Below are positions 5,485-16,118 of a DNA stretch of 36,252 bases, piece by piece. The notes beneath the pieces are model-generated. The model saw only the letters and a program-made list of their open reading frames with translations. It was not told the origin of the DNA and made no database searches. The position numbers were made by a program, and so were the translations under genes. This stretch comes from Bacillota bacterium (lineage in GTDB: Bacteria > Bacillota > Clostridia > Oscillospirales > CAG-272): NCBI GenBank assembly GCA_029219205.1, contig JAQXSY010000133.1, forward strand, positions 1 through 36,252. The letters run 5' to 3'. How positions within the stretch are numbered: position 1 is the first letter of the stretch; every line of letters begins with the position of its first letter.

Positions 5485-5746
5485 TTTTTGTTTATGGATA
5501 AAAGAAAAATAAAATCCCTTTGGAAAATGAAAAAATGCCCGAGCGGGCGGTTCTTTTGTCAAAACTCAATACAAGTCAACATATAAATCAGGGATTATGC
5601 GCCGGAGCACAGCGGATATAAGTCAGGCTCCGTCTCTCACTTTAAAAATCGCAAATCATTTCAATTAACAGTCAGAGTGACTGAAATATCATATACATAG
5701 CACCGGCGGCTGCGGAGTTTTCGCCCGTTTGGTTTGGAATAAAATT

Positions 5747-7081
5747 ATGCACATTCAGCTTTCAGATCATTTTACCTATGGTAAACTCATAAAATTTACG
5801 ATGCCGTCTATCGCAATGATGATTTTTACATCGATTTACAGCGTTGTAGACGGTTTCTTTGTTTCAAATTTTACAGGGAAAACCCCTTTTGCCGCTGTCA
5901 ACTTAATTATGCCGGTTCTTATGATTCTCGGCACAGTCGGCTTTATGTTCGGCACCGGCGGCACGGCCATTGTTGCGAAAACATACGGCGAGGGAGATAA
6001 AGAGAAGGCAAACAGCTATTTTTCTTTTTTTGTCTACACTGCCTTTGCATTGGGAATCGCACTGGCGGCTCTTGGCATTGCATTTATTAGGCCTATATCC
6101 GCGCGGCTCGGCGCAGAGGGTGAACTGCTGGAAAACTGCGTTTTATATGCGCGGATCACGCTTTTGTCATTGCCGTTCTTTGTACTGCAGGTTATGTTTC
6201 AAAGCTTCTTTGTGGCTGCTGAGAAACCGCACCTCGGCCTTATCGTAACGCTTTCCTCCGGCGCGGCAAATATGATACTGGATGCCGTTTTGGTAATCCT
6301 TCTGCCGCAGGACTACAAGCTGGCGGGCGCCGCCGCTGCCACAGCAATTAGCCAAATGGTCGGCGGTGTGATCCCTCTTTTCTACTTTTTCAGACAAAAC
6401 AGCAGTATTCTCCGGCTCGGGAAGACAAAATTTGACGGCAGTGCCATTTTAAAAGCCTGTATCAACGGTTCGTCGGAATTCATGAGCAATATTTCCATGA
6501 GCATTGTCGGCATCCTTTATAACATGCAGCTTATGAAATACGCCGGAGAGAACGGAGTTGCGGCTTATGGCGTAATGATGTACGTCAGCATGATTTTCTC
6601 CGCCGCCTTTATCGGATACTCCATCGGCACCGCGCCTATCATCGGCTATCACGACGGCGCCCGGAACTACACTGAGCTCAAAGGCCTGCTTCGCAAAAGC
6701 CTGATTATGATCGGCATTTTTGGCGCCGGCATGGTGGTATCCGCTGAATTGCTTGCAGTTCCTCTGTCAAAAATCTTTGTCGGATATGATGCGGAGCTGA
6801 CGGAAATGACTGTTTCCGGTTTTTGCATTTTTGCTCTGTCCTTTGCCTTTATGGGCTTTGGTATTTTTGCATCCGGCTTCTTTACCGCCCTAAATGATGG
6901 TGTGACATCTGCAATTATTTCTTTCCTGCGCACCCTTGTGTTCCAAAGCGCCGCAGTTATGCTCCTGCCTTTGATTTGGAAGATTAACGGCGTCTGGATT
7001 TCTATAGTTGTCGCTGAATTTATGGCAGTTGTACTCGGCGCAATATTTCTTAAAGCAAAAAAGAAGAAGTATCATTATTGA
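5747..7081 (+). CDS. MATE family efflux transporter
   Basis: ~445-aa polytopic protein; 'FTMPSIAMMIFTSIYSVVDGFFVSNFTGKTPFAAVNL' is typical of MatE N-termini. Listed start 5729 is TTG; ATG at 5747. Confidence 0.92.
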   Translation: MHIQLSDHFTYGKLIKFTMPSIAMMIFTSIYSVVDGFFVSNFTGKTPFAAVNLIMPVLMILGTVGFMFGTGGTAIVAKTYGEGDKEKANSYFSFFVYTAFALGIALAALGIAFIRPISARLGAEGELLENCVLYARITLLSLPFFVLQVMFQSFFVAAEKPHLGLIVTLSSGAANMILDAVLVILLPQDYKLAGAAAATAISQMVGGVIPLFYFFRQNSSILRLGKTKFDGSAILKACINGSSEFMSNISMSIVGILYNMQLMKYAGENGVAAYGVMMYVSMIFSAAFIGYSIGTAPIIGYHDGARNYTELKGLLRKSLIMIGIFGAGMVVSAELLAVPLSKIFVGYDAELTEMTVSGFCIFALSFAFMGFGIFASGFFTALNDGVTSAIISFLRTLVFQSAAVMLLPLIWKINGVWISIVVAEFMAVVLGAIFLKAKKKKYHY

Positions 7082-7177: not shown

Positions 7178-7588
7178 ATGAAAAGGTATGAAATAAACGA
7201 TAAAGACAAAGAGCTGATTGAAATCGGTCTTGGCGTATTGAAAAAGAATTTTGACGACGGCATTTATAACCATACCGTTGGATGCGCCGTTTTATGTAAA
7301 AACGGTAATATCTACAAAGGAGTAAATTGCGACAGAATACACGGTTCATGCGCGGAATACATCACAATAGGAATGGCAATTTCAGCCGGAGAGAGGGAAT
7401 TTGACACCATAGTGGCAGTTCACGACAAACACTTAAATTTTGTTGTCCCACCGTGCGGTAATTGCCGCCAAATGCTGTTTGAATACTGTCCCGACATAAA
7501 AGTTATTGTCAATGACGAAAACGGAAAGCTTATCAAAGTCAAAGCGCGGGATTTGCTGCCGTTTGCCTGGCAGCCTGTAATTTGTTAA
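7178..7588 (+). CDS. cytidine deaminase / blasticidin-S-deaminase-like zinc deaminase
   Basis: 'GSCAEYITIGMAISAGE' plus 'PPCGNCRQML' zinc motifs; C-terminal 'RDLLPFAW'. Confidence 0.88.
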   Translation: MKRYEINDKDKELIEIGLGVLKKNFDDGIYNHTVGCAVLCKNGNIYKGVNCDRIHGSCAEYITIGMAISAGEREFDTIVAVHDKHLNFVVPPCGNCRQMLFEYCPDIKVIVNDENGKLIKVKARDLLPFAWQPVIC

Positions 7589-13410: not shown

Positions 13411-13905
13411 TCATTTATCTAACTCAAATACGTGCTTAAATTCTTTTACCGTTTCTCCAAAACTGCAAATCAAGGAATAACTTCCAAGTTCAGCGTCAGC
13501 AGGAATATTGAAATAATAACTAAATGAACGTTTTTCTCCTGGGGCAATCTCATGTTTTCCGAAATCATCAGTATCCGCAGTAGGTTCTGGCGACAATGTG
13601 AAACTATTATCACTATCAACACAAACCAACTTTACGTTTGCTCGAAAGAAACTATATGGTCCTTCCCACGCATAACTCACATTTTGTTGGTTTGTTAAAT
13701 CAACAGAAATTCGCACCCGTTCGCCTCTCTCAACAGAGTCGCTCATAACTTGATATGAAAATCCAAAGTCTGCATCATCAATCTGCTGTATTCCCATATC
13801 TGTTGTGTCGTCATATGAACTATCAGATTCTTTTTCCGAGGGCAGTACAGTACACCCTGTTAAAAGAAATGTCAAAATCAAAAGTATCGAAAATATTCGT
13901 TTCAT
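13411..13905 (-). CDS. small lipoprotein
   Basis: 'MKRIFSILLILTFLLTGC' signal peptide with lipobox; no recognised domain. Confidence 0.8.
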   Translation of the reverse strand: MKRIFSILLILTFLLTGCTVLPSEKESDSSYDDTTDMGIQQIDDADFGFSYQVMSDSVERGERVRISVDLTNQQNVSYAWEGPYSFFRANVKLVCVDSDNSFTLSPEPTADTDDFGKHEIAPGEKRSFSYYFNIPADAELGSYSLICSFGETVKEFKHVFELDK

Positions 13906-13916
13906 ACAGATTCCTC

Positions 13917-14503
13917 AAGTCATTCCACTAAATTATACGTCAATGAAAGCCAGTCTCCTTCGTTTCCATTGGCTATAGAACCATACTGATATAAAACAAT
14001 CGAGTAATTTCCACTCTCACCAGCAACCACGCGAAGCATTTCAACTATTCGATACCCCCGGGCTTGCTGCTTTATTACCGGTATTATACGAGGAATAAAT
14101 CGGATTATCATTATAGTTACCAGCAGATTTAACAACCGTAATAAAGTGAGCGAGAATCTGATAATCATACACCCCGTCTATATCGTTCCGATATTGTTTA
14201 ACGCCGTCAGAATAACTACCGTCCGCATCCGGTGTTCCATTGTTATAATATCCAAAACTACAATTTACAATATCACAAGCGTTATCAATAAACCACTGTA
14301 TTCCAATTCTATCCACATCGCTGACATATTATTCTGCATCGGGAGCAATAGCAGTTAAAATTGATGCTACATTTGTTGCGTGGGGCGTCACATCTACCTA
14401 ACTATCCCTATAAGTAATATTTTTGTCGGCAAGATTGACATGAGTTTCATCACAGATTCCCTTTCTATAAGCAATATTCAATTTATTCAATAAACGAAGA
14501 CTG
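13917..14503 (-). pseudogene. decayed S8 (subtilisin-like) peptidase
   Basis: Minus-strand reading gives 'DVTPHATNVASILTAIAPDA*YVSDVDRIGIQWFIDNACDIVNCSFGYYNNG...VVKSAGNYNDNP': subtilase-like order, with in-frame TAG and TAA stops and a later frame change to '...VAGESGNYSIVLYQYGSIANGNEGDWLSLTYNLVE*'. Confidence 0.72.
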
Positions 14504-14537
14504 TTTCACGGTTATTTGGGTTCTAACTTAATAACAT

Positions 14538-14580
14538 AAAAAGCGCACAAGCTGATACTTCAAAGTCCAACTCATGCGCT
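14538..14580 (-). terminator. Rho-independent terminator of the 34-aa small ORF
   Basis: Minus strand AGCGCATGAGTTG-13 nt-CAGCTTGTGCGCT (13 pairs including G-U) followed by TTTT; the stem contains the sORF stop codon. Confidence 0.7.
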
Positions 14581-14676
14581 CATGTTGATACGTTTACTTT
14601 GTCCTCCACGTAATTGGCAACAATACAAGATATAATTTCGCACGGGTGCAGACCTTTTGCAATAACGAATGTTCAT
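14572..14676 (-). CDS. 34-aa Cys-containing basic peptide MNIRYCKRSAPVRNYILYCCQLRGGQSKRINMSA
   Basis: ATG-to-TGA small ORF absent from the supplied track; SD GGAGGT 7 nt upstream, promoter and terminator both present. Confidence 0.6.
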   Translation of the reverse strand: MNIRYCKRSAPVRNYILYCCQLRGGQSKRINMSA

Positions 14677-14732
14677 GATGTTACCTCCAATTACAGAATG
14701 CTGGCTCACTTCACACAGCTAACCGTATTGGT

Positions 14733-14761
14733 ATTTTATCATATAATTTTAGAAAATGCAA
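14733..14761 (-). promoter_or_regulatory. sigma-A promoter for the 34-aa peptide unit
   Basis: Minus strand TTGCAT (14761-14756)-17 bp-TAAAAT (14738-14733). Confidence 0.65.
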
Positions 14762-14822
14762 TAGTTTTTACGAAAAAGGTTTGAATTTTGACGAACTTTT
14801 TTCGGACAAGCCGAGTGCACTA

Positions 14823-14851
14823 TTGAAAAAGCAAAAACGGCATGATATAAT
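14823..14851 (+). promoter_or_regulatory. sigma-A promoter for the FAD oxidoreductase
   Basis: TTGAAA-17 bp-TATAAT with extended -10 (TGATATAAT). Confidence 0.7.
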
Positions 14852-14942: not shown

Positions 14943-16118
14943 ATGAAACCGATTACAAATTCTGAATATGAAATTGCCGTGTGCGGCGGCGGATTTGCGG
15001 GAATCTCTGCGGCTTTGGCGGCGGCAAGGCTCGGGAAAAAAGTCATTTTATTTGAAAAGCAGTATATGCTCGGAGGACTTGGCACGGCAGGATTGGTTAC
15101 AATTTATCTTCCGCTTTGCGACGGATACGGCCATCAGGTTTCCTTCGGCATTGCGGAAGAACTGTTAAAACTCTCAGTTACTTACGGCGCAGAGGCGCTC
15201 TACCCGGGCAACTGGCTTGACGGACAGGGATCGCGGACCGAAAACGACAGCCGTTATATGGTGCAGTATAACGCTCAGCTTTTTGCAATTCTGGCAGAAA
15301 AACTGCTTATGGAAAACGGCGTTGACATTCTTTACGGAAGCTATGTCGTCGGCGCAGAAACCGAAGACAAAAAAATAAAGTCGCTCTATGTTGAAAACAA
15401 ATCGGGCAGAACGAAATACATTATTAACTCCGCAGTTGACGCAACAGGCGATTGCGACATTGCAAAATTTGCCGGCGCGCCAACCGAAACCTTAAAGCGC
15501 GGCAATGTATTGGCCGCCTGGTATTATTATTCGGGCGAAAACGGATACAGACTTCAGCAGCTCGGTGCGTCCGACAATCCGGAGAGAGCGGAAAACTCGC
15601 CAAAACCCTTAGTTGCGCGCCGTTTTACCGGGCTTGACGGAAAAGAAATCTCGGAAATGGTCTGCCTTTCTCATCAAACAGTATTGCAGGACTGGCTCAA
15701 AAAACGTGAAAAAAATCAAAATGCCGCAATAGCGACGCTCGCATCCATTCCGCAGATACGCATGACCCGCAGACTCATCGGAGAATATGAGCTTTCGCAC
15801 ACGGAAGAACACACTTTTTTCGCAGACTCCATAGGCATGGTCTCCAACTGGAAGAAGCGAGGCCCCGTATACGAAGTGCCTTTCGGAACGCTGTATAATA
15901 AATCGGTAAAAAATCTGATCGTCGCCGGCAGGTGCACGTCTGTCAGCGAGACGCTGTGGGACGTTATGCGTGTTATCCCGTGCTGTGCCGTTACGGGCGA
16001 GGCGGCGGGCACTGCGGCAGCTATGACTGACGATTTTTCCGCGTTAAAAATAACCGAGCTGCAGGAAGTATTGCAAAAAAACGGCGTTGTACTTCACGAA
16101 AATGACCTGCGTAAATAA
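14943..16118 (+). CDS. FAD-dependent oxidoreductase
   Basis: 'EIAVCGGGFAGISAALAAARLGKKVILFEKQYMLGGLGTAG' dinucleotide-binding motif; 'DATGDCDIAKFAGAP'. Confidence 0.9.
   Translation: MKPITNSEYEIAVCGGGFAGISAALAAARLGKKVILFEKQYMLGGLGTAGLVTIYLPLCDGYGHQVSFGIAEELLKLSVTYGAEALYPGNWLDGQGSRTENDSRYMVQYNAQLFAILAEKLLMENGVDILYGSYVVGAETEDKKIKSLYVENKSGRTKYIINSAVDATGDCDIAKFAGAPTETLKRGNVLAAWYYYSGENGYRLQQLGASDNPERAENSPKPLVARRFTGLDGKEISEMVCLSHQTVLQDWLKKREKNQNAAIATLASIPQIRMTRRLIGEYELSHTEEHTFFADSIGMVSNWKKRGPVYEVPFGTLYNKSVKNLIVAGRCTSVSETLWDVMRVIPCCAVTGEAAGTAAAMTDDFSALKITELQEVLQKNGVVLHENDLRK

What the first reader, a model, noticed from the sequence alone, without database searches (positions are those of the whole stretch)
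14533..14761. Complete small gene for a 34-aa Cys-containing basic peptide, missing from the ORF track
On the minus strand, about 230 bp holds every element of a gene in order: promoter TTGCAT-17-TAAAAT, SD GGAGGT 7 nt before ATG, ORF MNIRYCKRSAPVRNYILYCCQLRGGQSKRINMSA*, and a 13-pair hairpin with a U-tract whose stem includes the last codons and the stop. It has three Cys (one CC pair) and many Arg/Lys. It sits upstream of a decayed S8 protease and a lipoprotein, about 1.5 kb from a LytTR/GHKL/ABC-exporter locus. A signal peptide, an RNA-peptide regulator or a short toxin are all possible; none is shown.
Basis: partly seen in the sequence, partly recalled or inferred. Interest (0 to 1): 0.72.

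Follow-up and report, generated by a model that had tools for sequence, protein, structure and literature searches.

The report
Leader-peptide transcription attenuator before protease remnant
The small "gene" is most likely not a stand-alone peptide but a ribosome-sensing on/off switch (a leader peptide plus competing RNA hairpins) in front of a now broken secreted-protease gene; a clear relative lies in front of an intact secreted protease in a different bacterial family.

Summary
In detail: promoter, SD, 34-codon ORF and an overlapping terminator lie at 14538-14763 (-). No match in up to 395 family genomes, phages or plasmids, but another family of the order (L068/L072) has a full-length relative: same promoter type, SD-ATG, 34 codons, terminator (62% aa). 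A diverged, probable relative (L077/L080) lies in another order. The three Cys are not conserved and substitutions show no clear peptide-level selection, so a cysteine peptide, pheromone or toxin is unlikely.

What is conserved builds a switch. In all three copies codons 7-14 pair with the terminator's 5' arm (antiterminator), and the SD pairs with about codons 18-24 (anti-antiterminator). Between window and L068 both helices carry a compensatory change. In modelling, a ribosome at codons 1-3 keeps the antiterminator; one at codons 5-16 mostly removes it. This is the logic of vmlR and bmrB: early ribosome arrest turns the downstream gene on. Downstream: S8 protease pseudogene plus lipoprotein (window), intact secreted metalloprotease-like gene (L072), membrane protein plus broken blasticidin-deaminase-like gene (L080). 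New member of a known kind, absent from Rfam; mechanism inferred, inducer unknown.

The parts
14733..14763 (-). Promoter TATTGCAT..TGATAAAAT of the lineage's strong type; predicted start of transcription near 14726
   Evidence: conserved in L068
14683..14688 (-). Shine-Dalgarno GGAGGT of the leader ORF
   Evidence: kept in L068 and L077
14572..14676 (-). Leader ORF, 34 codons plus TGA: MNIRYCKRSAPVRNYILYCCQLRGGQSKRINMSA
   Evidence: translation itself inferred
14687..14694 (-). 5' strand of the anti-antiterminator (GUAAUUGG, overlaps the SD); pairs with 14610-14617
14610..14617 (-). 3' strand of the anti-antiterminator (CCAAUUAC, about codons 20-23)
14638..14658 (-). 5' strand of the antiterminator (codons 7-13); pairs with the terminator 5' arm, 14565-14578
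14565..14581 (-). Terminator 5' arm, shared with the antiterminator; holds the stop codon of the ORF
14538..14558 (-). Terminator 3' arm and T run
13929..14484 (-). S8 (subtilase) pseudogene: lacks about 235 N-terminal and about 240 internal residues, has in-frame stops
13411..13905 (-). Open lipoprotein gene; lipoprotein genes adjoin several intact S8 relatives too

Best explanation
A ribosome-responsive transcription attenuator. RNA polymerase starts near 14726. With no ribosome, the SD pairs with codons 18-24 (anti-antiterminator), which leaves the terminator free to form: off. A ribosome that translates normally passes codons 7-14 and destroys the antiterminator: off. A ribosome arrested on the first codons blocks the SD helix and leaves codons 7-14 free to hold the terminator's 5' arm: read-through, on. 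The client was probably the downstream secreted-protease/lipoprotein operon, whose protease is now a pseudogene here; the inducer is likely something that slows or stalls early translation, for example a ribosome-targeting antibiotic. Shown: anatomy, a relative with compensatory changes, alternative pairings in three copies. Inferred: translation, switching, inducer, client.
For: (1) L068 keeps promoter, SD-ATG, 34 codons and terminator. (2) A blind listing of helices that both sequences can form ranks terminator (12 bp), SD helix (8 bp) and antiterminator (6 bp, plus 5 bp) at or near the top; 3 helices of 6 bp or more with a double compensatory change against about 0.4 expected, reached in 0-0.5% of column shuffles; sliding the partners by 1-3 columns drops pairing from 100% to 24-42%. 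(3) RNA up to the 5' arm folds into the antiterminator in window, L068 and the diverged L077, each time at codons 7-14; 60, 20 and 11 of 1000 shuffles do as well. (4) A modelled ribosome at codons 1-3 keeps it, at codons 5-16 it mostly goes. (5) In L072 an intact secreted-protein gene with an HEYLH motif starts about 60 nt after the terminator and no promoter is evident between. (6) The conserved blocks GTCTG and TGCG inside the ORF are explained by this pairing.
Against: Only two secure copies and one probable one; L077 scored E 2.6e-4 per genome in 216 genomes, about 0.06 expected overall. Real hairpin-T-run sites in the same loci give antiterminator-like pairing as good as p<=0.06 in 14%, <=0.02 in 7% and <=0.011 in 3.5% of 114 cases, so one copy alone would prove little. 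The SD helix is not significant in the window (p 0.12) or L077 (0.24) by itself. The pair-shuffle control on two sequences has little power (124 of 500 reach the observed value). In the window the client is broken, and intact S8 relatives elsewhere lack this leader. No expression data.
Confidence: 0.72

Rival explanations
1. Stand-alone small mRNA for a functional basic peptide (signal, toxin or RNA-binding peptide) with its own promoter and terminator.
For: Full gene anatomy; equal length and open frame in L068, 62% identity; dN 0.25, dS 0.72.
Against: Differences fall about evenly on codon positions (9/8/11), 13 of 17 changed codons change the residue, all Cys lost, frame would stay open by chance in 26% of simulations; no Pfam or NCBIfam match; conserved runs in the ORF are explained by RNA pairing.
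Confidence: 0.1
2. Non-coding small RNA that acts in trans, the ORF being incidental.
For: Discrete unit of about 190 nt between promoter and terminator; L068 folds better than all 200 shuffles (z -4.0).
Against: SD, spacing and ATG are among the best conserved nucleotides; the structured parts are competing helices around the terminator; no Rfam family; the window fold is only z -1.8.
Confidence: 0.08
3. Amino-acid-starvation attenuator of the classical trp/his type, sensing a charged tRNA through the early codons.
For: Same general anatomy; MNIR is identical in the two close copies.
Against: No run of one kind of codon before or in the antiterminator; the early residues differ beyond MNIR (YCK against INK) and in L077; the genes behind it are not biosynthetic.
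Confidence: 0.06
4. The same kind of attenuator, but a dead relic that no longer regulates anything in this genome (not exclusive of the best explanation, which concerns the kind of element).
For: The protease next to it is a pseudogene; patchy spread, and mobile-element genes near L072 and L080.
Against: All parts of the leader are intact in the window, and the lipoprotein gene behind it is still open.
Confidence: 0.3

Closest known systems
vmlR leader of Bacillus subtilis (PMC9226507)
   Same: Short upstream ORF whose early-arrested ribosome blocks an anti-antiterminator, lets an antiterminator form and prevents intrinsic termination; arrested initiating ribosomes are the trigger
   Different: The vmlR uORF has 3 codons in the first stem-loop; here 34 codons, the antiterminator is inside the ORF and the stop codon is in the terminator; client is not an ABC-F gene; no sequence relation seen
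bmrB leader of bmrCD, B. subtilis (PMC4191407)
   Same: Long leader peptide (53 aa) with terminator, antiterminator and anti-antiterminator encoded in its reading frame, induced by ribosome-targeting antibiotics
   Different: Client is a multidrug ABC exporter; sequence relation not tested directly
Mobile attenuators (PMC2965389)
   Same: Related terminators in front of unrelated genes in scattered genomes, tied to mobile DNA
   Different: Those derive from IS terminators; here a complete leader-peptide switch with its own promoter recurs

Membership tests
Leader-peptide (ribosome-mediated) transcription attenuator | Promoter, short ORF with SD, then intrinsic terminator before the client gene | tested here: met
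Leader-peptide (ribosome-mediated) transcription attenuator | Antiterminator that shares an arm with the terminator and overlaps the ORF | tested here: met
   with the caveat
Leader-peptide (ribosome-mediated) transcription attenuator | Intact client gene directly downstream without its own promoter | tested here: inconclusive
   by eye met in L072; in the window the first gene is a pseudogene
Leader-peptide (ribosome-mediated) transcription attenuator | Ribosome position on the ORF changes read-through | not testable with these tools
   only modelled
Amino-acid attenuator (trp/his type) | Run of codons for the sensed amino acid | tested here: not met
Type I toxin or other hydrophobic small protein | Hydrophobic membrane segment | tested here: not met
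   sequence itself: Arg/Lys scattered throughout, no hydrophobic stretch of membrane length
Any described RNA family (Rfam 15) | Covariance-model score at or above gathering | tested here: not met

The most novel reading that the evidence does not exclude
A hitherto undescribed, horizontally spread attenuator family that couples ribosome stalling (for example by antibiotics) to the production of secreted proteases rather than of resistance proteins.
Probability: 0.2. Interest if true: 0.62.

Novelty: new member of a known kind. Interest (0 to 1): 0.45.

Why it matters
Leader-peptide attenuators are hard to find because their sequence and peptide change fast. This one was visible in raw sequence, has a relative in another family and probably in another order, matches no Rfam, Pfam or NCBIfam model, and sits before secreted proteases, a client class not met for such switches in the papers searched here. 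If translation arrest really turns it on, it would link ribosome stress to secreted proteolysis. It also shows that an isolated 'small gene' with a terminator over its stop codon should be read first as a leader.

Tried and rejected
Family-wide tblastn hits at E 0.006-0.05 (L029-L033) were aligned and rejected as chance. L069, L070, viral hits L071 and L073, L078 and L079 were not accepted: no shared anatomy where inspected. Viral degenerate-pattern scans, phage and plasmid searches by DNA and peptide gave nothing. R1 in the 63 genomes of L068's family found only that genome; R2 in the 30 genomes of L077's order only that genome. Idea that the ORF is the frameshifted signal peptide of the S8 gene: no frame fits. 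Idea that S8 genes in general carry this leader: not so.

Full report
What is there. On the minus strand, 14763-14538 holds a promoter, an SD, a 34-codon ORF and a strong terminator whose 5' arm contains the ORF's stop codon. The promoter belongs to a type used throughout this lineage: the pattern occurs six times in the own genome (reversed control none), and the other five precede plausible units: a 482-aa protein, a T-box-like leader, an IS110-type transposase, a 236-aa protein and a RimP-like gene (names by eye). So transcription of this stretch is likely.

Relatives. In the family of the window (295-395 genomes searched) no other copy was found. In the order, one genome of another family carries a full-length relative (L068): promoter, SD, start, 34 codons and terminator align, with 77 of 105 ORF nucleotides identical. 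A covariance model from these two found a third, much more diverged copy in another order (L077). It has a promoter-like sequence, an SD, a 37-codon ORF and a terminator over the end of the ORF. Its homology is probable rather than certain.

Coding or not. Between window and L068, 28 nucleotides of the ORF differ, spread 9/8/11 over codon positions; 13 of 17 changed codons change the residue; none of the three cysteines survives. The longest conserved runs (TAATTGGAGGT, CATCATGAA, GTCTG, TGCGAAAT, GGAGGACAAAGTAAACGT, ATGAGCGCAT) are conserved as nucleotides. This does not look like a peptide under strong selection for its own function, though the ORF and SD are kept.

The switch. Listing every helix that both sequences can form, without a prior structure, gives at the top the terminator (12 bp), a helix between the SD and codons 20-23 (8 bp, one double compensatory change) and a helix between codons 11-13 and the terminator's 5' arm (6 bp, one double compensatory change), which a further 5 bp (codons 8-10) extends. 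Three helices of at least 6 bp with a double compensatory change are seen against about 0.4 expected; 0-0.5% of column-shuffled alignments reach that (pair table). The third of them (codons 20-22 with 14572-14567) is a further way to hold the same terminator arm. When RNA is folded up to the end of the 5' arm, codons 7-14 pair with that arm in window, L068 and, with quite different letters, in L077. Duplexes at least as good arise in 60, 20 and 11 of 1000 shuffles. In 114 hairpin-T-run sites of the same loci such values occur in 14%, 7% and 3.5%, so the strength lies in the agreement of three copies in place, and in the compensatory changes, not in one copy.

How it works. In the model, a ribosome with its P site at codon 1-3 leaves the antiterminator formed (mean arm pairing 0.58-0.77); at codons 5-16 it is mostly lost (0-0.44). 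The SD helix, which a ribosome at the start would open, crosses the antiterminator and should compete with it. This is the logic published for vmlR, where arrested initiating ribosomes prevent an anti-antiterminator (PMC9226507), and for bmrB (PMC4191407). The inducer here is not known. A hint, no more: in L080 the leader is followed by a 59-aa membrane protein and a broken gene close to a 'putative blasticidin S deaminase' (E 1.6e-38), on a contig with ArdA and IS21-type genes (IS21 by eye); blasticidin S acts on the ribosome (own knowledge).

Clients. In the window the leader stands about 55 nt before an S8 subtilase remnant without its N-terminal 235 residues and an internal block, followed by an open lipoprotein gene; lipoprotein genes adjoin several intact S8 relatives too. 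In L072 an intact 635-aa secreted protein with an HEYLH motif (weak DUF6055 match below the Pfam cut-off) starts about 60 nt after the terminator and no promoter is evident between. Intact S8 genes in relatives lack this leader, so the link to proteases rests on two cases, one of them broken.

Verdict. The mechanism is inferred from anatomy, covariation and folding only.

Noticed in passing
L051, L052, L053, L054 (upstream of S8 genes): Several S8 relatives have other tiny upstream ORFs with SD-like sequences between promoter and protease gene (MNEETFC, MYLLTQLKNKNTIGTK, MESEIFS, MESDIFS), with no terminator seen.
   Followed up: partly
window 7178-7588 (+) and 5729-7081 (+): Cytidine-deaminase-like protein whose best solved relative is blasticidin-S deaminase (E 3.4e-16), next to a MATE efflux pump.
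   Followed up: partly
L080 1543-1959 (-): Broken putative blasticidin-S-deaminase gene behind the L077 leader, then a CPBP (Rce1-like) protease; ArdA and IS21-type genes on the same contig.
   Followed up: partly
L072 12850-17286: MobA/MobL relaxase and other mobile-element-like genes start about 4 kb after the L068 leader.
   Followed up: no
window 14823-14851 (+): Divergent promoter TTGAAA-17-TATAAT (11 of 12) facing the FAD-dependent oxidoreductase gene at 14943.
   Followed up: no
L064 1501 onward: The same promoter type lies before an IS110-type transposase with a long 5' leader in the own genome (possibly the bridge-RNA region).
   Followed up: no
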